Positions 18,989-48,807 of a stretch of DNA of 64,000 nt are shown one piece after another (positions within the stretch are counted from its first letter, which is position 1; each line of letters begins with the position of its first letter). Made by a program: the position numbers and the translations under genes. This DNA comes from Cylindrodendrum hubeiense (lineage: Eukaryota > Ascomycota > Sordariomycetes > Hypocreales > Nectriaceae). The notes beneath the pieces were generated by a model. That model saw nothing but the letters and a program-made list of their open reading frames with translations, was not told where the DNA came from and searched no databases. The stretch lies in NCBI GenBank assembly GCA_014621425.1, contig JAANBB010000002.1:251001-315000 (forward strand). The letters run 5' to 3'.

Positions 18989-21091
18989 TCAAATTATTGT
19001 TAGAGTTGTAGTAGCTGCTCTTTCCCAGAACGAGCTATCGATTCCCCATGCTACACCGACTCGTCGAAAGCGGGTTGGAACTGTCGTAAAAATCTGTTGT
19101 GCTACGTCGCATTCCTCACCCTGAAGAGCGATGGCGAATGTCCCCATCTTCCCATCCGAAGACCTCTTGCTATTCATGCAGCACAATAGCCATACAAGTC
19201 GTATCGTATCAACAGGTGCACAATCAGAGCAGAGCGGGACGTCGTAGCGGATCTCGCCAATCTTCCCAGGTGTTCCCGCCCCACCCACTCCATAAAGGCT
19301 TAAGCGGTCTTGGGGACCTGAAGTATACGACGAATGCGTACTATCCATTGGCGTGGCGTAGGCCTCCTGTCTTGAGTATACCAATCCCACTTTGCCTTCC
19401 ATTACAACTGACCCGTCTTTGAGAATACCGTACAGGTCCGATGACGTTTGTAGAGAAACGTCAATCAGCTTGGGTACGTATGCAGGATCTGGCTCGGCAT
19501 TAAAGGTGTACCAGTAGCCATTGATCCAGGACAGATAGTGAACAGGGCCTTTGATGGAAGCCCATGACCAGCTGGGTGCAAGATAATCCGAAGGACGGCT
19601 GTGTTGTGTAAAGCCTTGTCCGACGTGCCACTTGCTGGCCCATAGTAGGCAATGAGAGAAATGCGACTTCCACAATCCGGCATAGTATTCATCAGATGTG
19701 CTCTCAGCTGTAGACCTGGCAATACCAGATAAAGCAAGCAAGACATCCGTCTGTTTGGTGAGGGAGCGGCTGGTGTATCGGTCGACGAGCTCGAACCACG
19801 ACAGCCTTTGCTTCGTGATATCCTCCATTGATGTTGAATCGTTAATTGGCATACCAATCCCGGTGGGCCGGGCGGATGACCCGCCCTCGAACAAGCGTCC
19901 CACATCGAAAGAGTTTGGATCACCCCAAGGGAACTCAATGGTTGCCCTTAATTGATGGCACTCCCAGCGGATTGTGTCTTTAGAGTAGTGCACAACTCGG
20001 GGTGAAAGCTCCCTTTCTTGAAGACACCATCCACGTTTCGTCAGTGGATCGGATGTTAGAATCTGACCAACAGGGTATGTGTCTCTACTCCACAGTCGAA
20101 ATGCTGTAGTCGAGTCCTTTGTTGATGAGGCTTCACCGTTAATGGGATACTCGATGTCAACAGGCCCGTATGATCGCGCATTTTCGTCCACATGACAACC
20201 TCCCCTTCCATCAGCAGATCCGGATGCCGAGATGGTGAGATGTGCAAGTGAGTAGACGGATGCCATTTGTGCCGCTTCCTTTTCCCAATCCTCACGGGAA
20301 TCTTGAATAATACATAGCGAATCGATCCACACGTATTGAATACCGAGACGTCGCGCAATCTCGATGCAATCTTGGAAGGTTTGGGGTAGGTCTTCTGCGG
20401 AAATGGAGACATAGTGACACTCCAGCGTCTTTGAAGTTGTTTTAGCAGCATTGGGCATTGATAACCCCCAGCAATGACTCAATGCAATATAGTGGCGGGT
20501 CGCATGCTCAATATCTGCGCTTGAGACCAGCAGAAGCGCTGGCTCAGCAGCCGTACCTACATCAATAAGCCGAGTTGGAAGGAAAGACGTTCCACGAGAG
20601 CAGCAGCTGTGGGTTTCGAGACAAAGCTTTGACCAGCGTTGTATTAATTCAGATTCGTACAGCAGGTAAGTTGAGCTGTCTTCTGTTCCAGGACTGGGGC
20701 TAGGTGGTTTTTCACTTCCTGCGCACTGATTTAGTCTCAATAATACCATGCATAACACAGCGGTACACATACTCCACTCAGAAGGAACAGCGAATGTTCG
20801 AAAAACTCCGGCTTCTTTCCAGCCGACTCTCACAGATTGCTGGCCAAACTTGGTACTGCTCAAGCGTACTCGGTCATCCTTTTCCCATGTCCTCGATAAG
20901 CCGTACTTCCCGGAATGCTCGGCCGTGCTTCGCTCTATGGCATGGAGAAAGAGAGCACACCCCTGACAACCTGCCGCGGCTGACTCTTGCAGCGCAATGA
21001 AGGTGCTCTGATGGTCATAGTCGCATTGCTCATCGCGACGGAAGCTAAATAATTTCGCCGGAATTTTGCTGCAATAGTTGCAAAGTGTCAT
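18989..21091 (-). CDS. HET-domain (heterokaryon incompatibility) protein
   Basis: A 700-aa cytosolic protein with a HET domain, a fungal TIR-like module linked to self/non-self recognition and cell death. I start at the ATG at 21091, giving MTLCNYCSKIPAKLFSF; this matches the usual N-terminal Cys pair plus the later CQGCALF. The frame stays open further upstream but without an in-frame ATG. HET motifs: HYIALSHCWG (about 205-215), FQDCIEIARRLGIQYVWIDS-LCIIQDS (block 2), then YSLAHLTISAS, and RGWCLQERELSPRVVHY (block 3). The C-terminal part (SDYLAPSWSWASIKGPVHY) is the standard HET-gene tail. A 54-nt in-frame segment (20772..20719) has GTATGT/CAG ends and a CTAAAT branch-like site, so it may be an intron; removing it changes EWS-to-AGS into EWR-SEK. 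Confidence 0.9.
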   Translation of the reverse strand: MTLCNYCSKIPAKLFSFRRDEQCDYDHQSTFIALQESAAAGCQGCALFLHAIERSTAEHSGKYGLSRTWEKDDRVRLSSTKFGQQSVRVGWKEAGVFRTFAVPSEWSMCTAVLCMVLLRLNQCAGSEKPPSPSPGTEDSSTYLLYESELIQRWSKLCLETHSCCSRGTSFLPTRLIDVGTAAEPALLLVSSADIEHATRHYIALSHCWGLSMPNAAKTTSKTLECHYVSISAEDLPQTFQDCIEIARRLGIQYVWIDSLCIIQDSREDWEKEAAQMASVYSLAHLTISASGSADGRGGCHVDENARSYGPVDIEYPINGEASSTKDSTTAFRLWSRDTYPVGQILTSDPLTKRGWCLQERELSPRVVHYSKDTIRWECHQLRATIEFPWGDPNSFDVGRLFEGGSSARPTGIGMPINDSTSMEDITKQRLSWFELVDRYTSRSLTKQTDVLLALSGIARSTAESTSDEYYAGLWKSHFSHCLLWASKWHVGQGFTQHSRPSDYLAPSWSWASIKGPVHYLSWINGYWYTFNAEPDPAYVPKLIDVSLQTSSDLYGILKDGSVVMEGKVGLVYSRQEAYATPMDSTHSSYTSGPQDRLSLYGVGGAGTPGKIGEIRYDVPLCSDCAPVDTIRLVWLLCCMNSKRSSDGKMGTFAIALQGEECDVAQQIFTTVPTRFRRVGVAWGIDSSFWERAATTTLTII

Positions 21092-21707
21092 GGCGAGGAG
21101 GTACCGGTGGGAACGGTCTGCAATTTCGGCTATTAAGGAGTGCTCAGTCACGACTGTTGTAGTGGGCAAGTTGGCATAGTAAGGGAGATGGGTTTAGTCT
21201 CTCCGTCGAGGAGATTGAGGTGTTAAATAACTGCCACTCTAGTCATTCTTAGGTAATCCTATCTTATTGGCCGCAGTCAGGTTGCAAGTTTCATACAGGC
21301 CAAGAGCTGAATCCAATGAAAAGCGTACAATTAAATGTACATGATATGCTTAGATAATCTAGTGCGGTCCCAGGGTTGATAATGGCCAGCAGGGATCACA
21401 TATCTGGAGGTGGACTAGTCAAGAATCGGCTACTGCTTGACCAGTAATGTTATTTCTGGTTAAGAGCCCATCACATGGTTGACTGTACATCGCCTCATCT
21501 ACCGTCAGATTAATTGATCGCTGTACCTATTTTAGCTTTTATTTCACCCGGAATTATGCTGCTATTTGAGTAACTCGTACTAGGCTTTTATTTGTGAAAA
21601 GTGACAGCAGCATGGATTTTACACATCACTCGGTCAAACAGTTGTTTGGCAGAATAGTTGTGTCATGAGATATATTTAAGCTAGTTGCTTTCTTCATCCT
21701 GCGATAA
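21092..21707. other. intergenic, no gene seen
   Basis: The 5' flank of the HET gene and 3' flank of the small membrane protein, both on the minus strand. Nothing else recognised. Confidence 0.6.
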
Positions 21708-29660: not shown

Positions 29661-32600
29661 TCATTCCCCGTATGCTGCTTGAAGCATCAACGCCGCTTGA
29701 TGGTGGTCGCATCTCGATGCGTACTCTGCCGGTGTATGGCCGTCTGCATCTCTTGGCGCCTTTGTAAGCTGAGAGCAGAAAATAATATCAGAGATGATAG
29801 AGGCAAAGCCCTTCTTAGCCGCGATGTGAAGAACGTGGCTCCCATCTTGGCCAACCTTGTCAACGTCTAGGCCATGGCTCATCAGGCGCTTAGCAATCCT
29901 GGACACCTCCTTCTCACTGAGATACTCCAGTGCAGTGAATAGTGCTGTTCTTTGAGCGCCGTCGACGCAGTTGATATCCAAGCGACCAGATTCCAGTAAA
30001 GCAGACAAGGTCTTGCGCTGAGACATTCTTACAACGAGATGCAGAATTGGTTCCCTATTCCCGTCATATTCATTGCTTGTGTTGGACGGATCAGCTCCTG
30101 CTGAAACCAATTGTGTGGCTATACGCTGTTGCTTCTTTTCAACTGCAGCATACAATAGCGAAGTACCCTCAAAGACGAAATTTGGATTAGGATCAAGCCT
30201 CATCAATAACTCGGCGACGTTCGGCAAGTTGTTTCGGATTGACTGCATCAGAGCAATACCCTTGACCTCAGCTTCTGTGCGTGCTAATGAATCACTCTTT
30301 GCCATGGAATACGCAGCAACTGCATCTTCAAGACTGACACCCCCCGGGGCATGGTCTTCAGTGGGCCAGAGATCGGTTCGTTGCGCTTCAAACAATTGAA
30401 CCAGCGCATCTGCATGATCATTCTTCCAAGCATAGTAAAGAGGTGACTTGTTCCACTTGTCCAAGGCACCAATTTCGTCGTCGCGTAGGATAATTCTCAC
30501 TGCATCTGAGAAACCATGTTTGGCAGCTTCGTGTAATGCCGTTGAGCCATGGAGATCCAGTTTACTCTCGTAATTCTCTTGATTCTGTAGCACTGCCTCC
30601 ACAGAATCTTCCAGTCCAAGATGGAGCACCGTATGAAGCTTCGGTAGAGTCCTGATCCACTCGGAAAATACGTCCCAGGACTCAAAAGGTAAATTGAGAT
30701 GAGTCGTATTTGTGTATAGGAAGACTTGAGTCGCCAAACGAGAGTTCCGAGTGTCAAGAAAGTTCAAGACTCTATGCTGAAAGGCGTTGTCTCGAGACGA
30801 GTAGCTTTTCAAATAACTTGCCCAACGCGCTGCAGTTTGAAGAAACGTATTCGTTCGAAGCAGTTCCATGAACGCTGATTCTGTATCACAGCAACCACTG
30901 TTGAACTCGGGCCGCTCGAGATACTCCAAGCAAGCTTTGGAAACGGCTAGTTGGATGTCTATACTTTGTTCTGTTTCATCATATTCGTGGCGGACCAAGG
31001 TTGCTACGTATGGCGAACTGAAGTAGAGAAGCTGGGTACCATGATCTATGGCAACGAACGGCTCACACCTCTTCAGAACCTCATAGTAATTGACATTCGG
31101 TGTACCTGGTTCCGTGACAAGATCGAGGATTGACTGGAACTGATCGATGTATTCTGTCGACAGGCGATGGTCGCCAGACTGTTGTAACCAAATCATCAAA
31201 ACAACTGACGCGGCAGCGACTGGGTCCGGGTCGTTTTGTAATTGCGTAAGGTAATCCTTGAAGATAACTTCTTGGGTTTGTAGCCAGTGTCGTATGATGC
31301 GTGGGCTTTGCGTAATCATGTGCTGGTGTGCTAATAGTTTCAGAGTGTAGATTCTCGCCGTTGTAAAGCTAGGAAGTGTTAGTTAGGGCGACGATTGTGC
31401 AATTCCGTTTCTTTCAACACTTACTGTCCATATGAAATGTCCGCTATAATCTTTGCACTAGTTGCAAAGAAGTCGGTTGGTAGTTGGCGGCCCAGGTAAT
31501 GATGCTCTGTTTGAAGGATTCCCTCCACGTACATTTGAACATCGCTCCACCGACCACGGTGCTTTGGATCCTCAAAAAGATCAATCTGCGAGGCAAGATG
31601 ACGGGATCGGAATTCTTTAACGGAACGGCTTGTGATGAATATTTTGCATTGTGAGGATAGCAAAGTCTCCAAGAGGACTCCAAACATGAGTGGATCCACC
31701 ATGTTATCCTCGTCCCATCCGTCCAAGATGATGACAACCTGGTTGTTGAGTTTTTGGAGTGTTTTATACAACAAATCCAACAAGACCTCTTCTGATGGGG
31801 GCTTCTGTGAACGTATCCTGGTGCTGATAAATTGAGTCAACGTGGGTGGGCCATGCGACATGACAGAATTGGAATGCCGTTGGCGGTTAGAGTTAAGTTT
31901 TGGTATTTCCTTGACGCGAGGCATCCCCCCGGAAAACTCTGAATTCTGGGCGTCGGGAATGTTTCGATTGTTTGATAGCCGGCGACTTAATCCATACTGC
32001 GTCGAGTCAATAGTGGTGAGAGATTTCATGGCGCTTGAACCAACACTAGCAATGGTGCCGGAGCCGACCTGGTTGGAGATGGACGGCAGTGCCACGGCCT
32101 TTTCATGGGAAATCGACAACCGCCTTGGGCGAGGACTTGACATTCTGGTCCCTCCAGTCGAATACGAGCTCTCAGCATGGCTGGATAAAGAAGCCGAGGA
32201 GTCGGACCTCCGAGGGGACGGGCGGATAGTCGGGCAGCCGTGTCTGGGCTGACTGCTTTGTGGAATCACAGACTTGGGCCTTTGAGGATACGAACTGGCA
32301 TCTGGGGATGGGGGCATGTCTTCTGCGAGAACGTAAAGTTGCTCAAGTAGAGCCAGGGTCACTCCCGCTGCTGTTTGCACCTTTCCATGGCCCAAGTAGA
32401 AGTATGCATGCCATTTTTCAATCTGTTGTAATACATCAATCGCCTTTGATCTTGGCGATATTAGTCTCGGACCGTCAAGGGTGGGGGTATTACTTACACA
32501 AGCATGCTTTTGCCTACGCCTGGTGGACCGTAGCACGCAAATACGGGTAGAGTAGAGTCATATAGCCAGCTCCTGAATTGCGTGTTTTGGGTAAGCCATG

Positions 32601-33589
32601 CGCCAGATCCCTCCACTCTGGAAGATGTGAGATGGACATGTCGCTTTGTGTAGGCACCCGGAATATCGCGATATGGACTCGAGGGACAGTGGACAAGAGT
32701 AGCGAAATGTCTCATCCCTGCGTCAAAGCGTGGTACAGGCATTCCTACTGATGCTCGATAGCCTTGGTCTTGTCGATAAGCCAGGGAGCTGTCCAAGTTA
32801 GCGAATCTCCAAGTTGCTCGATACCTAGATCAAAACATACCTTGCGTTTTGGGCAGGCAGAAACGGCTCTTGTCGAGGTGTCGTCGCTTTGATACCCCCT
32901 ATTATCCTGGTCGTCAAATTCTGGGCGATGTTTAGGCGTTGTAATGCCTGTGCTGGTGGAGATCTGCCTCTGTGCCGATGATGGGAATGTTGTAATGTAG
33001 AACTGGACATGTTTGGCCGCAAGATCGGACCGTCAGTCAGCAGCGATGGAATGGGCGTTTTGCGATCATCCTTTCGCGATGGTGACATGAGAGCGTGAGG
33101 AACCACGCGCTCAAAACCTGTTGGACTTGGCGAGTGTCGCTCCTGTGCCGCCAGACCGTGTAATCTATTGTGCTGCAGAGGCAGCATGGCAGCGTGTCGA
33201 ATATCATCATCAGGACCGTGCCCAAACTCCCTATCGGGTTCACTCGGAATGATGAAATCGCCATGTCTTTCAAAGTGGTGGTCTGTGTCGTATTCGAAGT
33301 GTTCTGGATGCCCTTCCCAGGAGGCATAATGCTGGTTGGGATCCGATACGAAACCAGGCTGGAAGTTCGAGGTCGGGACAGGCAGTTCAAGATCGGTGCT
33401 CTCCCCATATTCTTCGCAGGGATGGACGTAGGAGAGGTCGAATGTGCCGCCTTCTGGGCGCGGAGACCGCGAGTCCGTCGTGAAGTACGCCATGGATGTC
33501 GACGACACAGAGTAGTGCCTGGTGAGAATGGCCGGCGCACCACGACTTCGGACGCTACGGGACGGACTGGGCGAAGTTGGGTTGTGCAT
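29661..33589 (-). CDS. NACHT-type NTPase with C-terminal ankyrin repeats (NLR-like)
   Basis: Exons are 33589..32841, 32788..32498, 32450..31425 and 31368..29661; the frame holds through all three introns and gives 1,257 aa. The first ~280 residues are low-complexity and probably disordered. Walker A is CYGPPGVGKSML (337-344). After an AYFYLGHGKVQTAA beta-strand, a Ser/Pro/Arg-rich insertion of roughly 150 residues (about 390-545) precedes LLYKTLQKLNN and Walker B VVIILDGWDED (about 585-594). The sensor KIFITSRSVKEF follows. A helical winged-helix-like region comes next (VVLMIWLQQSGDHRL..., FVAIDHGTQLLYFSSP). The C-terminus has ankyrin repeats, for example DLHGSTALHEAAKHGFSDAVRI, DKWNKSPLYYAWKNDHADAL, GTSLLYAAVEKKQQRIATQL and DGSHVLHIAAKKGFASIISD. 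Such STAND proteins are fungal NLR analogues in non-self recognition and cell death. No clear N-terminal effector domain is present, which points to a partner effector such as the neighbouring genes. Confidence 0.88.
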
Positions 33590-34084
33590 CGGATTTCAGG
33601 CTGTAGTTTCGTGGCGTCTGACACGTAGCACAGGACACCGTATGCGGAATAGAGGCGGAACTGATACGGGGACCGCGTTTCCGGCACCTGACGTGCGTAC
33701 ACGGCTATTCGCCGCGGGGAACAATACATCTCGCTGACGAATTGCACACTACTGTATCCAAGGCATCGTAAAATCCCGCACAATGAGTTCTCCAATGGGA
33801 AGAGCGGGACTTGACACTTCTCGCACTGCGCGAGACAACGCCATGGCTTCTGCCGTCATGAAGAGGCGTTTTGATGAGTTCATTTAGCCTACAAAAGCAA
33901 TCTCTGGATGTCGCCTTATGGATCGAGGAGTGCTGGAATGCGTACGATGATCGATATCTGCGACTTTGACGTGTAAACTTCAGTAATATAAACGAGGAAT
34001 ACAATGGGGGGCCACATGTTCCAACAACGGTTATTCAAATGCACTATTCAGATCAGATAGCAAATACGAACCATATCTCTGCTT
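33590..34084. other. intergenic, no gene seen
   Basis: The 5' flank of the NACHT-ankyrin gene and 3' flank of the unknown 320-aa gene, both on the minus strand. Confidence 0.6.
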
Positions 34085-35047
34085 CTATTCACCCGTCTCC
34101 ACTTCCTCCTTCTTTTCCGCCCCCGCATTCGTCCCTTGATCACCACCCCACACTACAGCCAAATTGGGTAGCTCACCTTTCCCCCTTAGCCTTCCCAGAT
34201 TGTTGGGATCAATCTTAGCCAAGTCAAACAGATTCTCTCCCTCACCGCGCTTGATCGGCTCCTTGGTCGGCGCCACCTTGTAGGGCTGCGTCATTCCAGG
34301 CTTTAAGCCCAGCAAAGACTTGATTCCGCGTCTCAGGTTGTGCATGCTCCCTCCCGTGACGCGAATGTTGAATTCTGCAAGATACGGCTCGTCTGTGGTA
34401 CGGGACAGTAGCATTGCCACTGTGATTCCAGGCGGCACGCCACTGACTTCCATGGGGTTCGACTCGAGAACCCATCGGACACCACTGCGCTGTTGAGTCT
34501 TCTTGTCCATAATCGCGTACGCATGGCCGGTGTCGAAGTAGCTCTGCGACCATGAAATCTTGTTCTCAAGACCGGCTGACACCTCGGCAGTGCCACCTCC
34601 GCCTCCGCCTCCTAGTTTAGCCCCGAGTGCCGCTGTTTTCTCCCTATCGACCTTTGTCATATTAGATCGAACCATGGAATCAAACGGCGCCCAAGCTAGG
34701 AGTTTTGGCTCCGCTTTGTCGGGGGGTTTCAGGTCTTTGAACTCCATGCTGAAGGTCACATGCTTGATCTTCTGGCCAGGCTCGTTGGAAGCCAGCACGA
34801 CCTTGAGGATGATGAGGGTCATTCGCTGCTTTGTCTTTTCATCGTCAAACCCATCAACCTGTAGGAGCCGCTCGACGCTGACGGTAAATCCGGATGGGTC
34901 GTCAGAGAAGTGGACAAGCCCACCATCCTTAGTCTTGAACGACTTGAGGCCGCCATGCTCCTGCGTCGTTCGGTCATTGGTCTCGAAGAGTTCAGTCTCG
35001 ATATAATCGTCGAAGTCAGCGTAGTCGCCTTCCCATTCGTCAGCCAT
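34085..35047 (-). CDS. 320-aa intracellular protein of unknown function
   Basis: I do not recognise a named domain. Single exon, 320 aa, no signal peptide or membrane helix. The acidic N-terminus (MADEWEGDYADFDDYIETEL) leads into a compact, beta-strand-rich body: GLVHFSDDPSGFTVSVERLL, KHVTFSMEFKDLKPP, KLLAWAPFDSM, ISWSQSYFDTGHAYAIMDK, RSGVRWVLESNP, GVPPGITVAMLLSR, EPYLAEFNIRVTGG. A run of seven Gly after GAKL lies mid-protein, followed by AEVSAGLENK. The last ~85 residues (NLRRGIKSLLGLKPG onward) are basic, then acidic and probably flexible. It is head-to-head with a subtilisin-domain gene and next to a NACHT-ankyrin gene. In known fungal cell-death loci (HET-Q1/HET-Q2) a small executor is paired with a subtilase that cleaves it. 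This protein could be an analogous substrate, but nothing in its sequence proves it is gasdermin-like. Confidence 0.85.
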   Translation of the reverse strand: MADEWEGDYADFDDYIETELFETNDRTTQEHGGLKSFKTKDGGLVHFSDDPSGFTVSVERLLQVDGFDDEKTKQRMTLIILKVVLASNEPGQKIKHVTFSMEFKDLKPPDKAEPKLLAWAPFDSMVRSNMTKVDREKTAALGAKLGGGGGGGTAEVSAGLENKISWSQSYFDTGHAYAIMDKKTQQRSGVRWVLESNPMEVSGVPPGITVAMLLSRTTDEPYLAEFNIRVTGGSMHNLRRGIKSLLGLKPGMTQPYKVAPTKEPIKRGEGENLFDLAKIDPNNLGRLRGKGELPNLAVVWGGDQGTNAGAEKKEEVETGE

Positions 35048-35903
35048 GATGATGGAGAAGGTAGCGTTATGGTATCACTGGTAATTTGAGGATATCATCG
35101 AGCGAGCTCCTGTAAATATTCACAGAGGTTATACCAAGTGCACATTGGGTCTCCGTCACCCGTGCATGCGTAGTTGATCCAGCCCCAGGCACAATTGGCC
35201 ATTGAAATCACTACCGCAGACTCGGGAGCGTTCCCTTGCTCCCCGGCCCTGCGCCCCCCACAGTTCAGCGCCCGTCAGCCCGTGTCATGTGCACCAGTGA
35301 CGTGACGATAACTCATTTTCCCATCATTGGCTTGAGCAGCAGCCAGAAATGAGCGGTATTGTTTCTTGGCGTTTTTGTTTGTCATGTCATTGCTCCAATA
35401 ACCAACCACAGCAAGCTATGTCCATCTTGCGGAGTACAGGGCTGAGAATCATTTCGCGTGGCGTCCAATATTGCATTTTCAAACACTGGTCCATCAAGTG
35501 AGGCGGACAGTTCGTGCTTATCTAAGATCTCGAACGGGACGTTTCCGCAAGGGCCAATTGCCATCCTTGCACGATCTGCATGTCTTTCAGCTCGGCTAAC
35601 AACGTTGCAATGTGGCTAACAATGTGGCTAACAATGTGGTGGGGATAAACAGAGGACGACAAGGCTATGGCCGCCTCCTCGGAGGGCCCGGTACATGGGT
35701 GGGAGCTGTCTTGCAGCTGTCTCGTTGCCTATGAGTGGATTTCGATGTGTAACGCTCAATCCGTTGGCAGTCTGCTCCTCGCCTTTCACGACATAGCACA
35801 CATCGCGGCGAATTTCTTGGCAATACCCTACAAACCGTTGCTGCGAGCGCGACAAAAGACAAACCCACAGCTTGATACAATCCAGTGGGTCTGGACGTCC
35901 AAT
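35048..35903. promoter_or_regulatory. divergent promoter region, 320-aa protein / subtilase
   Basis: An 856-bp spacer separating the two head-to-head starts. The plus-strand frame is open from an ATG at 35667, which could add 79 residues to the subtilase gene, but that extension is Cys/hydrophobic-rich and unlike the following disordered N-terminus. I therefore prefer the ATG at 35904. Confidence 0.5.
35611..35639. repeat. 12-bp tandem repeat TGTGGCTAACAA
   Basis: Two exact copies (35611-35622, 35623-35634) plus the first five bases of a third. A degenerate copy lies just upstream (GGCTAACAACGT). Located in the divergent promoter. Confidence 0.8.
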
Positions 35904-38900
35904 ATGCCCAGCGCCGTGGAACCGAGTAGCAAAACCCCAGCGGCTCCATCCAAAGGTGACGATGGCCAGCCGAAGGCGTGCAACCAGCTGACGGCCAGCT
36001 TGCATGAGGTAACGAAGAACTGGGTACACCAAATTAAGCAAAGCGACTCCAAGGATCTTTCTACGGAAGGGGCAAATCTTGTGAACAACTTGCAACTTGT
36101 CATCTTGGCACAGATGCAGCAGAATGCCACAGCAGAGGATACCGGAGACGATCAATTCAAAACGGGCCTCCTGGAGGGGCAACAGCACCGCTTCGTTTGG
36201 GACGATGCCGTTGCCACTGAATTTCGAGACTTCATCAATAATCCTCCTTCCGGAATCGATGGTTGTGTTTTATGGTGCATGATGTCCGAGGCGGTGCGGC
36301 TTCTGCTGGATGCCCTCCGCCCAGACGATGGCAGCTACGACGAAAGCGACTTTGAGACTGATGAAGATACCGATGAGGATTCAGATGCAGAGAGTATCCA
36401 AATGCCCCGTTCTCCATCTCCTTCCCCTGTACGTCCAGCCTTTCCACCGGTTCAATCCAGGGATAGCCGTGCCTCAGCAACGTCAATTCGACCTTTGGTT
36501 GCTCGCGCCGACGCGTACTATGTTCTCAGCAAAGTCCTCATTAGCGTCCATCCAATGCTAGCCTTTCATCAATTTATTCCAGAAGGTTTGAAATGCAAGT
36601 ATAAAAAGCGTCATCAAACCCAGAAAGTCACTAAAATACCACCTTTCCGCCAAGCGATCGATGAAGGGCACATCGAACTCATTGAACTGATTATCCTCGA
36701 GTGTCGGAAACATATTCACGACGGGACAAAACGACCCAAAGTCGGCTGGCCTTTTCTGAGTGGCATATATAATCCCGTGCAATATATAGCCAAGGCAGCG
36801 AAAGAGAACAACCCTCAATACAGCGACATGTACTGCGCACTTAGAAAGTGCGTACAGCACAAGGACAAACGGCGGCTTGAAGTACTGCAGATACTCCTCA
36901 AGCTGGACGAGGATGAGAAATGCAATGTTCGTCTCGCAGATAAGACCATTTTATTCAAGGCGGTGCAAAGCACATTTACGAATATCAACGGAAATGATGG
37001 CAATGTCGCTGCGCTTCCTACGAATACCGTACCGCCCTATTACTGGCAGGAATCTCAAGACTCCGATGCACACCATAATCCGATGCTTGCAACTGTCGAG
37101 ATGATTCTCCAATACAGAGGTGATCTCAAGACAAAGGAAGCCGTCTTGAACGTGCTGAATCGTGGACCATCATCGGGTCAGCAGAGAGGAAAAAGGGAAA
37201 TGGAACGGATCCAGGCGCAATTGATTGATCTTGTTGCCAACAACGCAGAGAAAATAGTGGATGAGGACGTTTTGCAAATCATCATGGAAAATGAGCTGGT
37301 CGATGTGTGGTCGCGGACACCTATCAAACATGCAGTCAGTCGTCTGGTCGAAGATGGCGAAACAGCCAAACGGCTATTCTGCACCTCCCTGAAGCTTGAA
37401 AAGAACCTGTGTTTCTCAGAGAGCATTGTTAATGCATCCAGGTTCGAGCTCGACTTTGATCTGATGAGCGAAATCGTCAGATGTGGCCGCTTGGATGTCT
37501 TGAAGCTCGAGGGCGTCCAGAACCGCTGGAAGAAGATCCATGATAACGAACCAACACGATGCATGCTCCACATCGCAGTGCAACATCGACAAGTTGGTTT
37601 TGTTAAGCACTTCTTGAAAGAAGAGCCCCATTCAGTAACAAGGGCCGTCCCATTCGAAGGAAATGCCAATGAGGATACGTATCCGCTCTGGCACCTCAAC
37701 TTCGATGAGGACGGCAAACCTCGTTGCAGGCCTTTATTAGTTCCGGAGACCCAGGCGCCAATTCCAAACATCCATGTAGATGACACCGCCTCAATGGATT
37801 CTGCGGTAGACATGAGAAGTCGAATACTCACAACCCCATCGAAAACGTCGAGTCTCGTGCTGCCAAAGACCCCAAATATTACCAATGACCAAAGGTCGAG
37901 TGCCAAGCAGGAGGAGCAAGAAATCCGCAAATTGCTGGTGCATGCTACCATAGAACACGCGGATGGGATGAAAACCATAGCCAAGATCTTCCGGGACTCG
38001 AAAGGTAAGCTCATATACTGTTATTTCATGAGTTGTTGATTGGATTTTATGTCCCTCCTGAGAGGTTTGCTAACAATGAATCAAGAAGCCGGTAAGCCCA
38101 ATTCACAATCTGTACCGACCTACTCGTCCACACATAAGATGAAGTCACCATTTGGTTGTACCAATGGCAGTCTATCCTTGTACTTCTTGATTTATTACTC
38201 TGTTACTCAGATTTGCATCCCACTCATCTCTCTGCTAACTGTATAGCAGTGGGTCAGATCTGCTTCGATCTCTCACGCTTCGCAGCGAGTCTGTACTCAG
38301 TTAAAGAGTTTCTACAGTCGTTGAAAGCTCTTGAAGACGAGCATAGCAAGCGTCATCTTAAATTCGAAGAGGTGCTGCGATATTTCGAGTTTCCCGCTCT
38401 CGATCTTGATGGGTGGAACAAAGGCCCAGAACGTTATCACCATGTGCATCGTGAGGTTTTCGATACACTAGATTGGCTAACGGACAGACATGTCACAAGG
38501 ATAATGAAACTCACGGTCTTGGATCGAATGTACGATCCACACGACGAGGAGAAAATCGCCTTGATGGTAGAAAAGTTCAAGGTCTCGACATTGGACTGGC
38601 GACATCTTGACATGGCAATTTCTTGCTTCACAACGGATACCAAGAAGCGGTTGACAGAGCTGCACTTGTACTCAAGCGGAAAAACAGCAGTCGTAGACCA
38701 CTGGCTTAGTGCTGATGGTATTGAGTCTTTGGAAAATGTACATCTCAAGTATCCCCAACCACTGGTTCATCTCCTGTATACATAACTAACACGGATACAC
38801 TACAGGTCGTGACAGTCAAAATACATTTCATCCAGGTAAGACTTCTACTTGCATTGTAGCCTCACAGCTTTTAACATACGTCTCCAGGATCTTATGACAC

Positions 38901-40106
38901 CGGACTGTTTCACCAGACTCAAGAGAAAGATCACCCAAAAGGAGTTCAAAGGTCGGAAAGCGGGCTTCAAATGCACCCCGGTTCGCCAAACATGGGACTC
39001 CTTGCCGCCCAACAATGCCAAGGATCTCTCTGAAATGTGGGTTATTGGTGGAGCGAATTCATGAATTGAGAAGCAGAACTAATTGAACTACAGTGCCGAA
39101 AGAGCGGTGCCCGATCTGTCCCCTTACATCACCAAATACGACGACCAGTTCTCCGAGTACAAACACAACGGCAGGCGAGTTCGACCAACTCGTGTGGCAA
39201 TTCTTGATAATGGGATTCTTAACATACCCCCATTCAGTGCGGCCAAGAATCATAAAGGCTTGTGGCCGCGTATCAAAGAAGGGCACTCGTTTGTCGATAA
39301 TGCTAGCCGATTGCCCTCATGGCTATTCGCGTCTGATCCTCATGGCACCCAGATGGCGAATTTAATATGTGCAATTGATCCGCATTGCGAGCTCTACGTT
39401 GCAAAAATTGTTGAAGGAAGACAAGGCATTACACCGGACAACGTTGCTGAGGTATGATATCTTGTGGTTTTTCCTTTAGCCTATCGGACTGTACTAACTC
39501 AAGTAGGCGATACACTGGGCTATTAGCAAAAAGGTTGACATTATTTCGATGAGCTTTTCCATACCTGATTTCACCAACAGCGGCGAATATTCCATCGAAC
39601 TCAAGAAAGCCGTCGAAGAAGCAAACAGTAAGGACATCATTCAGTTCTGCAGCCACCACGACGAGGGCTGGAACGTTAAGCATTCGTGGCCGGCCAGCTG
39701 CGACACTACCAAGGTGATCGTGGCATGCAACGAATTCGGCAATTTTCCCGATCGTGATGTGGGAAATTACGACTACAAGATCCATGGCATGGACATCTCT
39801 GCCGGCACAGTGCCGTATTTAGAGTCTGACGACAGTGTTTCTGGGAGCTCCGTAGCTACTGCGATGGTGGCTGGGGTTGCTTCTCTTATGCTCTCGTGTC
39901 GCCGTATGGAATTTCCAGATAAGAGATTTGGAGCTACAGGGGTTGAACATTATTCAAGGAAGAACTTTGTCGAGTCGATGTTGAACAAGATTTCCGACGA
40001 AGGCAATAAGAGTGAATCAAACAGCAAGCGTTACATGCGGCTCGGCAACTTTTCCAATTTTTTAGAAGATAAGGACGGCGAGGAGATTTACTCGTGGCTT
40101 AAGTGA
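35904..40106 (+). CDS. large intracellular protein with C-terminal subtilisin-like (S8) protease domain
   Basis: Exons are 35904..38004, 38086..38091 (6-nt microexon, optional), 38250..38737, 38806..38835, 38888..39036, 39094..39451 and 39507..40106, giving about 1,243 aa. No signal peptide. The N-terminal ~900 residues are helical, with an acidic tract (DESDFETDEDTDEDSD) and ankyrin-like pieces (FRQAIDEGHIELIELII, MLHIAVQHRQVGFVKHFL). The S8 domain starts near 950 with all three catalytic residues: Asp963 (RVAILDNGI), His1008 (DPHGTQMANL) and Ser1159 (SGSSVATAMVAG, in place of GTSMATPHVAG). At the position of the oxyanion Asn the sequence reads FCSHHDEG, so the Asn appears replaced, probably by Asp. 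Skipping the microexon also keeps frame and removes only Glu-Ala. Fungal S8 proteases of this layout act inside the cell, and HET-Q2 in Podospora cleaves a neighbouring gasdermin-like protein. Here the head-to-head partner is the 320-aa unknown protein. Confidence 0.88.
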
Positions 40107-45403: not shown

Positions 45404-47357
45404 TTATAAACATCGCGTTTCTCCACTGTCCTTCCTCAACTCCACACGATCCAAACCCTTTATATAAACATTGAGCGTGTAACTCCTCCTCTCTAGAAAA
45501 TCAATAGGCTCAATTTTAACCTCAGCTTGGAAATCCTGCCCAGAAATTTCCAGTCCAGGGTCAACGAAAGGATGATCTTCGAATTGGCTGGTATATCGCG
45601 ATCGAGCCTTTCTGAGAACCTGAGAGGTTACGTCGCTCGGATGCGTCGTAGATAAGTCATCGAGCATAAAGGAGTCCCAATTCTCAATCCAACACACTAT
45701 TTGACATTTGGTAGACGTTGGCCCCCAAAAGCCAGGATTCTTCACTCCCCAGAGTACGAAAAAGCTGGACTTGTCGTCACTGAAGAACAAAACACCGAAG
45801 ACCAATGTGCCATCAATCATCGGATCGATGTTAGGATAAACGTTTTCAAAAGGGAGGATCTTGTCATTCGTTAATGATGGATGTGTGACTCTAAGACGCC
45901 AACTGTCACATGCTTGTATGGCGAGTCTCAATTGCGGCGGTTCATCGAAGTTAGTCGGACCAAGCGGCCCAGAAGAAAGAAGAATTCGGCGGGGCTCAAA
46001 GTCTTTCGCATCGTATTCAACTGGAATGATTTTAATGAGCATTATGAATGAGGAGAACGTTTAAATATCGCACATGACCATATGATTTGTTGACAAGTGC
46101 GTTGGGAGACATACCTGAAACATTATCGATTAGTGCATCCAGCGCACTGGAGAATATGGAGAGGCTGCCGATGACATGGGGTTTGGTGTCTGGTTTGAGA
46201 ATGACCAATGAGTTGTTATGGTCCCTAATATAGCCTCTGCTGGGTAGATCCGGTTGAAGCGGATGGACAAATATCGCGACCCGGGTAAGGTAGTCGGCCT
46301 CTACTGTACAGCCAAGTGCAGCCAACCACAAATGATATACCATCACTGTTTTGCCGCTAGCATCCAAAGCCGTTACAACGCAGGGCCCAATCACTACTTC
46401 GATCTCAAGGCCTCTCATCGTTGCAGCGACATCGCTCGGGCCGAGCTGCCAATCCTCCCGGTGCGATGCTTCCAGCTGGAAAGCAGATGGTCCTTCCGGT
46501 AGGTAAGTTGAATGTGGGCGGATGAACCCCGTTTCCTGTGATGGCGCTGTCCAGGTTAAAATAGTTTGGTCCGGGGTTGTCCGCAGAATTTCCTGTTGGA
46601 GGCGCTGGAATGCTGTTTTCCCCTCTCCGTATAGCAGCGGCATGACAACGCCAAACAGCCCAATCAGACAATATGCCATATCTTCTTCTTTGGTAGTTAC
46701 TCGATTTGCTGCCCACTTCATCCTGCCTGCAATCGATGCGTTCTTTAGGGATGTTTGTAGGTTGTCTTCACTCCTGCATGTGCGGCAATCCATGTGGGGA
46801 CGAAACGGGCCGGGAGAATAATAGTGCTTTCGTGACAATATGCTTTGATAGACCCCAGTGATCCTTTCGAGTTCGGTTGCAATCTCATGCCTACTGGCCA
46901 AGTGATTCCAATTGCGGTCGAAGAAAACGAGATGGTGGGGCGCAATCAACTCCTGCAACGTCCATCCCCGAGTGAACCACCTGCTAGTAGCAAAGTTTTC
47001 CACACTCCCATCCATATGAAGTATCACGTCCTCCATATAGACGTAGCATGCAGCCGAGTTTCTGTACCACTTAAACATAGAGTTTATAGCCTCGGACAAC
47101 TCGGTGCTGTTGGATTTGTCGATGCAGCACGTATCAACCCAGGCATAGTGTAGATTATCCTCCCTTGCTTGCGCGCATGTCGCATTTATCTTTCTGACAC
47201 CCCTTGAAGGTTTTTGAAGATTGTACTGGAAGCCTCGAGACATGTTGTCGTAGGGACACTCGTCCTCGCCCCAGGTATGGGAGAGAATTGCGTATGGAGG
47301 TATGTCCTGGCCGAGGAAGGACTCGAGTTGTAGTGTTGACGTATGAATGAGTCTCAT
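45404..47357 (-). CDS. HET-domain protein (HET-E/D-type N-terminus)
   Basis: Exons 47357..46115 and 46020..45404, giving 619 aa. The start MRLIHTSTLQLESFLGQDIP followed by PYAILSHTWGEDE is the standard beginning of this HET subgroup, so I prefer the ATG at 47357 over the one six codons upstream. Other blocks: INATCAQAREDNLHYAWVDTCCIDKSNS, SEAINSMFKWYRNSAACYVYMEDV, SRWFTRGWTLQELIAPHHLVFF, and the later AANRVTTKEEDMAYCLIGLFGVVMPLLYGEGKTAFQRLQ. These match HET proteins with a STAND-less C-terminal half. The final ~200 residues (VEYDAKDFEPRRI onward) are not recognised. The intron ends GTATGT/CCAG and keeps phase. HET proteins trigger cell death after hyphal fusion between incompatible strains. 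This is the second HET gene in the window. Confidence 0.92.
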
Positions 47358-48807
47358 TTTGACCTCCAAGTGCAATACAACGTTGTAGAATGGTGATATC
47401 GACGCAGTAACTTGAGATCTAAGGTGGCACTGAAGTCGCCGACTGTAATGGGAGGCAGGAGAGTTCTACAATAATCCGGGTGATGGAACAAACGTTCTTG
47501 AGGATTCCTTTCCCGAGACGTGGAGATCATATTGTTGCTAGTACCGTCACACAAAATAGGTGCATGCAGTGACTGTTTCGTATTTAGTTGCGATAACTCA
47601 CCGTTATGAGTGGTTACATGGAAGGGGCCTCCGTGCGACACTCCAAGTTGGGTCCGAGAGATCAGCCACACGGTATTGTAAGAATCGTTTCAACCATGCT
47701 TCCTTCCGTTGATCCTTGCTATTTTTGCATGTGACTACCAGTCGGCATATGAGTATGACAACTAAGGAAAGTGTTGTATTACGCCAATGCAGGCCTCTTT
47801 CAAGGCCTTCAGCTCATCCGTGCAATCTTTGTCACACGCTTCCTCCAGTCGGCTCAGCTTCCGGTACAGTAATGTTTTTAGTAGTCAACACTCCGTGGGC
47901 CTTATGTTTGGACAAGGGTTCCTAAGCTATCTGTGTTTCCCCAACTGTCGCCTCTTGGGCAATTTCTTGCGATCTGATCTGTCGTATCTCCCTTCCGTTG
48001 GAGGTGTCGCCCCGCGGGAGCATGCCCGCCTCAAAAGCAGCATCGACCCATTTTTGCATCATTCTAGTCGGTATCTTCATGTTTGATAAGGACGCTGCTT
48101 ACTATGGAACCGGGAAGGACATGTACGGAGTGCCCCCGCCACCAACTTGTCATCAAGCAAGTCAAGCAAAGGAGGGCTATCCGTCCGCGAATTGACAACC
48201 CGCAGGGAGCTCTGGAAGTGAGGCTTGGGAAACTATGCACCTTTAGCCTCAGCCATCATCCGGGCGCCCGCTGTGTTTAGCCAGTCGAGCTTTTAGCGTG
48301 GATTGAGGTGCGGAGGTGAAGCCGGGGAGGTCCGGGAATTCCGGAGACCCATGCCACCAAAATGGAGCACAAGGGAGAACTAGTATTGGGGTTTTCCGGC
48401 TGTTAGGGGGTCGACCGGGAATGTTTAGGCAATTCCTGTCAAACGTCGGCCTCGAGTCTCGTGGCCTACGTACTCCGGACGGGCATGGGATGGCATCATA
48501 CCGAATACGGCACCGTATGAATTGGGCCGATCATGGCGGGGTTGAGCACGCGGGCCTACGAGCCAATCGAGTTTCACCATTTGGATCTCCACTCGCATCA
48601 CGTCAGGGTGTCTATAGTGTATAAAGGCGTTAATTCGCTCGCGAGACTCACCCAGGGGAGGCTGCGAGTTCATTACGTATTGTACGGCTTCGCAGCTCGG
48701 AGTGTGCCTGAAGATAAGAAACACCAGTCGTGCTACATATATCGACATCCGGCCACCCTCCTTGCCCGTTCAATATCGTATCTGTATCAGAGCGACCTTG
48801 TTCCATC
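47358..48807. other. 1.45-kb intergenic region, no supported gene
   Basis: The upstream regions of the HET gene (minus) and carboxylesterase (plus). Several short overlapping frames occur in a GC-richer part (48200-48700), but none has family features. Confidence 0.55.

What the first reader, a model, noticed from the sequence alone, without database searches (positions are those of the whole stretch)
29661..40106. NACHT-ankyrin / unknown 320-aa protein / subtilase locus: candidate undescribed cell-death or immunity system
Three neighbouring genes look like sensor, candidate effector and protease. The NACHT-ankyrin protein has no recognisable N-terminal effector domain. The large S8 protease has its catalytic triad and is head-to-head with a compact, beta-rich intracellular protein ending in a flexible basic/acidic tail. 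Established knowledge: in Podospora, HET-Q2 (subtilisin-type) cleaves the gasdermin-like HET-Q1 encoded beside it, and fungal gasdermin genes are often clustered with protease genes. Inference: the 320-aa protein may be a different protease-activated executor, and the NACHT protein may add sensing. No sequence feature proves cleavage or toxicity.
Basis: partly seen in the sequence, partly recalled or inferred. Interest (0 to 1): 0.78.

Follow-up and report, generated by a model that had tools for sequence, protein, structure and literature searches.

The report
Fungal haemolysin-fold protein beside intracellular protease
A mould carries, back to back with a protease gene, a gene for an inside-the-cell protein predicted to fold like bacterial pore-forming toxins, which suggests a self-killing switch built like the known gasdermin switches but from a different pore-former.

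Summary
The three genes are real and lie as stated; the source is Cylindrodendrum hubeiense (Nectriaceae), not Eurotiales. The 320-aa protein (34085-35047, -) belongs to a large unnamed family of apparently cytosolic fungal proteins (144 at E<=0.1; no convincing Pfam and no PDB sequence match). AlphaFold models of it (weak, pLDDT 61) and of a second-locus paralog (pLDDT 77) both match the leukocidin/alpha-haemolysin pore-forming fold; for the paralog 37 of 37 Foldseek hits at E<=0.001 are of that family. The same genome holds a second locus of like order and orientation: ankyrin-S8 protease, head-to-head with the haemolysin-fold gene, then an ankyrin-repeat gene. The two proteases share a middle domain and Asp at the oxyanion position. 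True gasdermins of this genome also sit beside S8 proteases (6 of 9 loci within 3 kb), so the layout matches known protease/pore-former pairs while the executor differs. Best reading: a protease-gated cell-death or immunity module with a leukocidin-fold executor (about 0.55). Cleavage, pore formation and death are untested; a third family locus has no S8 nearby; the NACHT-ankyrin gene's role is weakly supported.

The parts
34085..35047 (-). 320-aa candidate executor, predicted leukocidin/alpha-haemolysin-like fold; confident core residues about 51-120 and 171-240
   Evidence: single open frame; family of 144; model and fold searches, supported by the paralog model
34547..34654 (-). codons of residues 132-167, long Gly-rich hairpin, candidate membrane-inserting stem
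   Evidence: strands 132-143 and 156-167 in the model, but at low confidence (blocks of pLDDT 38-51); coordinates
34148..34297 (-). codons of residues 251-300, C-terminal extension conserved among the four closest relatives; a possible inhibitory or cleaved segment (inference)
   Evidence: alignment A1; not modelled confidently (pLDDT 32-37)
35048..35903 (.). 856-bp shared upstream region of the two divergent genes (619 bp if the protease starts at 35667)
35904..40106 (+). ankyrin-like repeats / middle domain / S8 protease; exons 35904-38004, 38086-38091, 38247-38737, 38806-38835, 38888-39036, 39094-39451, 39507-40106
   Evidence: Peptidase_S8 1.1e-13; GT-AG introns and triad; ankyrin matches only in relatives (P0008, P0009; second-locus protease)
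38258..39195 (+). middle domain shared with the second-locus protease (exons 3 to 6, introns included in this span)
   Evidence: profile of 8 class proteins finds the second-locus protease at 4.9e-16 to 5e-17; whole-genome search 9.0e-4
39660..39662 (+). Asp codon at the oxyanion-hole position, where subtilases usually have Asn
   Evidence: alignment with the intracellular subtilisin 7xr8 and with other S8 proteases
29661..33589 (-). NACHT-ankyrin gene, possible third member; exons 32841-33589, 32498-32788, 31425-32450, 29661-31368
   Evidence: NPHP3_N 9.7e-20, Ank_2 2.1e-24, P-loop and Walker B motifs

Best explanation
The head-to-head pair encodes a protease-gated cell-death module. The 320-aa protein is an intracellular beta-barrel pore-former of the leukocidin/alpha-haemolysin fold, kept inactive as a monomer. 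The large protease, with ankyrin-like repeats, a conserved middle domain and a C-terminal S8 domain, is sensor and activator: on recognising non-self or damage it cleaves its neighbour, most simply in the N- or C-terminal extension; the protein then oligomerises, inserts its hairpin and the cell dies. Shown: the genes, the triad, the head-to-head pairing in two loci of one genome, the family. Predicted: the fold. Inferred: recognition, cleavage, pore, death, and any part of the NACHT-ankyrin protein as a further sensor.
For: Both models match leukocidin/haemolysin toxins above other folds. Second locus with like order and orientation although the executor proteins are only about 17% identical. 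The two proteases share a middle domain not found in the other fetched S8 loci and DEG at the oxyanion site (8 of 8 aligned class members; 3 of 3 other S8 proteases have Asn). Hirsutella has homologs of both, each with longest contig 8,232,972 bases. 118 of 120 family members lack a hydrophobic N-terminal stretch by a crude measure, so they look cytosolic. Internal control: 6 of 9 gasdermin loci of this genome lie within 3 kb of an S8 match, as in the published rule (PMC10197012 section 15).
Confidence: 0.55

Rival explanations
1. The 320-aa protein is a very divergent fungal gasdermin, and the pair is an ordinary HET-Q1/HET-Q2-type system.
For: Same S8 pairing as gasdermins in this genome; beta-rich, similar size; sequence searches can miss very remote gasdermins.
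Against: Two gasdermins of this genome match solved HET-Q1 or RCD-1 chains (5.7e-5; 1.3e-6), whereas a 120-member profile of this family matches no PDB chain at E<=10; the gasdermin queries did not return the family loci; leukocidins, not gasdermins, fill the fold rows shown, though a missing fold match proves nothing.
Confidence: 0.1
2. The family is a beta-sandwich adaptor, binding protein or inhibitor of the protease that never inserts in membranes; the pair may still be a signalling module.
Against: For the better model all 37 hits at E<=0.001 and all 50 VIA rows are pore-formers, across residues 44-254 including the hairpin.
Confidence: 0.2
3. The three genes are neighbours by chance or by general clustering of immune-type genes; the window lies in a region rich in such genes.
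For: 148 NPHP3_N matches in the genome, a lower bound; two HET-domain genes lie elsewhere in the window; the C4 family locus has no S8.
Against: Order and orientation recur at C257 between strongly diverged copies; crude chance estimate 1.65e-4; the two proteases share a special middle domain; Hirsutella has both homologs on contigs of equal length. The argument holds for the pair, much less for the NACHT-ankyrin gene.
Confidence: 0.12

Closest known systems
Fungal gasdermin/protease two-gene clusters (HET-Q1/HET-Q2, Q2L proteases)
   Same: Small beta-rich protein gene beside a large intracellular S8 protease with superstructure repeats; the layout holds for gasdermins of the same genome (PMC10197012 section 15).
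   Different: The small protein matches no gasdermin by sequence and has a predicted leukocidin fold; the protease class has a distinct middle domain and Asp at the oxyanion site.
Leukocidin/alpha-haemolysin family of bacterial beta-barrel pore-forming toxins
   Same: Predicted core fold over residues 44-254 of the paralog, with a long hairpin where the stem would be.
   Different: Fungal, apparently not secreted (118 of 120 without a hydrophobic N-terminus), no detectable sequence similarity, paired with a protease gene.
Fungal NLR proteins with NACHT and ankyrin repeats
   Same: NPHP3_N/NACHT plus ankyrin repeats in the third gene.
   Different: No N-terminal effector recognised by Pfam; the gene in the same place at the second locus is a different ankyrin-repeat protein with lipase-like and degenerate NACHT-like parts read by eye (no Pfam match in those exons).

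Membership tests
Fungal gasdermin (fGSDM) | sequence similarity to HET-Q1 or RCD-1 | tested here: not met
   no PDB chain at E<=10 for the 120-member profile; two gasdermins from the same genome do match
Fungal gasdermin (fGSDM) | gasdermin fold of the pore-forming domain | tested here: inconclusive
   not among the rows shown in fold searches, which does not exclude it
Fungal gasdermin (fGSDM) | gene next to an S8 or CHAT protease gene | tested here: met
   window and C257, 2 of 3 family loci
Leukocidin/alpha-haemolysin family | core fold | tested here: met
   predicted models only; 37 of 37 Foldseek hits at E<=0.001 for the paralog, 23 of 35 for the window protein
Leukocidin/alpha-haemolysin family | sequence similarity to the family | tested here: not met
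   no Pfam family at E<=10 for P0001 and P0015, no PDB chain
Leukocidin/alpha-haemolysin family | secretion signal | tested here: not met
   2 of 120 members have a hydrophobic N-terminal stretch by a crude measure, neither of them the window protein
Leukocidin/alpha-haemolysin family | amphipathic stem hairpin that inserts in membranes | tested here: inconclusive
   long hairpin predicted with a low-confidence tip; alternation score not distinctive
Leukocidin/alpha-haemolysin family | oligomeric pore | not testable with these tools
   needs biochemistry
HET-Q2-like (Q2L) protease | S8 domain with catalytic triad | tested here: met
   but Asp replaces Asn at the oxyanion site
HET-Q2-like (Q2L) protease | superstructure repeats beside the protease domain | tested here: inconclusive
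   no Pfam repeat match in the window protease; ankyrin matches in P0008 and P0009 and in the C257 protease
HET-Q2-like (Q2L) protease | neighbour is a gasdermin gene | tested here: not met
   neighbour is the leukocidin-fold family; no gasdermin match on contig C112 at E<=0.1
Fungal NLR | NACHT-type NTPase plus repeats in the third gene | tested here: met

The most novel reading that the evidence does not exclude
Filamentous Ascomycota have a further class of cell-death executors beside HeLo and gasdermin proteins: a widespread family of intracellular leukocidin-fold pore-formers, switched on by cleavage by a dedicated, divergently transcribed repeat-S8 protease, sometimes with an NLR as third gene.
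Probability: 0.45. Interest if true: 0.9.

Novelty: new variant of a known kind. Interest (0 to 1): 0.8.

Why it matters
If true, fungi use a pore-former fold known from bacterial toxins as their own intracellular executioner, controlled by the same protease logic as pyroptosis. That would add a pore-former class to fungal regulated cell death, give a function to a family with no name or Pfam entry, and make protease gating of cell death directly testable in model fungi with gasdermin-protease pairs as the positive control.

Tried and rejected
Gasdermin membership: no sequence support; gasdermins are also absent from the fold rows shown, which proves nothing. An early profile of 5 sequences against the PDB gave only 6 weak matches, E 0.6 and above. 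Viral structure library: no hit at E<=0.001. NCBIfam: nothing for 4 executor-family proteins. Strand-alternation score of the hairpin: unremarkable, dropped as evidence. NACHT-ankyrin gene as a conserved partner: same place in both loci, but the window protein and the long exon of the C257 gene match only over ankyrin repeats and NACHT-type genes are common, so not claimed. DNA of other fungal genomes cannot be fetched here, so linkage outside this genome rests on equal contig lengths in Hirsutella alone. The 1.65e-4 estimate assumes independence and a uniform genome, and the S8 list is a lower bound.

Literature: searches (2 of 2 papers listed; 20 of 1,144; 20 of 2,512; 2 of 2; 8 of 8; 20 of 180; 10 of 13; 10 of 112), in the open library only. 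No listed title or start of abstract describes a leukocidin-fold cell-death protein of fungi. The listings count no leukocidin in PMC12881547, PMC10197012 and PMC9815663; hemolysin is absent from the latter two. Subscription papers and preprints were not searched, so novelty in print is not proven. Seen: passages of PMC12881547, passages and section 15 of PMC10197012, passages of PMC9815663; all others as listings. The primary gasdermin-protease paper (PMC8851545) is not held.

Full report
What is there. The three genes stand as described. NACHT-ankyrin: 29661-33589 (-), 1257 aa, four exons. 320-aa protein: 34085-35047 (-), one open frame. S8 protease: 35904-40106 (+), seven exons, 1244 aa from the likely start, triad intact. 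Executor and protease genes are divergent, 856 bp between starts; the NACHT-ankyrin gene lies downstream of the executor on the same strand. The deposited protein P0005 (97% identical over the aligned 70%) names the organism, Cylindrodendrum hubeiense; its contig has the length of the window's contig, 550,424 bases.

The 320-aa family. The single sequence finds three other proteins (66-73% identity: Ilyonectria destructans, Hirsutella rhossiliensis HRG_005643 and an unnamed JGI protein). Inside the genome it finds one weak relative on contig C4 (E 0.16); that relative in turn finds one on C257 at 2.2e-16 and the window gene at 5.9e-4. A profile of these three finds 144 proteins at E<=0.1, of which 120 were listed and aligned; most are about 285-300 aa, and the named ones are filamentous Ascomycota (genera placed from recall). 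At least four of the 120 bear the name intracellular serine protease (names are cut in the listing), yet no S8 family is among the 17 Pfam families that any of the 120 matches at E<=1. The best of those 17 is E 0.013; NCBIfam finds none in four members, and no PDB chain matches the profile at E<=10.

A second locus. On contig C257 of the same genome an ankyrin-S8 protease (Ank_2 5.1e-7, S8 5.5e-5) is head-to-head with P0015 (360 bp between the protease start at L028 2078 and the P0015 start at 2439). A long ankyrin-repeat gene follows P0015 on the same strand; I read lipase-like and degenerate NACHT-like parts in it by eye, but Pfam matches only its ankyrin repeats. Order and orientation equal those of the window in mirror image. 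A profile of the window protease's middle part, built from 8 proteins, finds the C257 protease at 4.9e-16 to 5e-17 and none of the other fetched S8 loci; a profile of the N-terminal part does not find the C257 protease. Over the whole genome the C257 middle part finds only itself and the window protease (9.0e-4). Both proteases have Asp-Glu-Gly where ordinary subtilases have the oxyanion Asn: 8 of 8 aligned members of this class, against Asn in 3 of 3 other intracellular S8 proteases of this genome, two of which (C319, C390) are gasdermin neighbours. From recall, prohormone convertase 2 also carries Asp there and is active. The third family locus, C4, has no S8 match on its contig and lies beside, or is fused to, a CorA-like membrane gene read by eye (no Pfam match).

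Outside this genome. Hirsutella rhossiliensis has both the executor homolog (70%) and the protease homolog (47% over 93%), each with longest contig 8,232,972 bases. That is consistent with linkage but does not show adjacency. Ilyonectria destructans gave an executor homolog but no protease hit among the 10 listed, in a search that scored only the 7,994 best candidates.

Control. The genome has 9 gasdermin-like loci by two queries at E<=0.1 (the C157 locus is weak, E 0.012); 6 of 9 lie within 3 kb of an S8 match, one at 5.1 kb, two on contigs without one. Two of the nine were compared with the PDB and match HET-Q1 or RCD-1. This agrees with the published figure of about 80% (PMC10197012 section 15). 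So S8 proteases of this fungus pair with either of two small protein families that show no sequence relation: gasdermins or the leukocidin-fold family.

Mechanism. Most likely the protease senses and cleaves, and the leukocidin-fold protein inserts its hairpin and kills the cell. By analogy with gasdermins, and with toxins that need proteolytic activation (recalled), the N- or C-terminal extensions are the likely cleavage sites; nothing here shows whether or where they are cut. The NACHT-ankyrin protein may be a further sensor; this rests on position alone.

Verdict. It works, on present evidence, like a gasdermin-protease pair; it is not a gasdermin by sequence; it has a predicted leukocidin fold without the sequence similarity or the secretion of that family. 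New variant of a known kind, interest 0.8.

Noticed in passing
18992-21193 and 46035-47465 (both -): Two HET-domain (heterokaryon incompatibility) genes lie in the same window (E 2.6e-31 and 1.3e-14), hinting at an immune-type neighbourhood.
   Followed up: no
L018:7560-9999 (G000 contig C4): The third executor-family locus lies beside, or is fused to, a gene whose end reads like a CorA-type two-helix membrane domain (by eye), with no S8 match on the contig: perhaps another way of delivering the same domain.
   Followed up: partly
39660-39662: Asp in place of the oxyanion-hole Asn in the whole protease class (8 of 8 aligned); could mark slow or specialised catalysis.
   Followed up: partly
38086-38091: A 6-base exon in the protease gene, supported by the deposited protein P0005.
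   Followed up: yes
P0056, P0086, P0117, P0119: Executor-family proteins of Fusarium and Colletotrichum are named intracellular serine protease in databases although no S8 match was found; perhaps the name came from fused gene models.
   Followed up: partly
L020:4355-5281 (+) and L021:3250-3852 (-): True fungal gasdermins beside S8 proteases in the same genome.
   Followed up: yes
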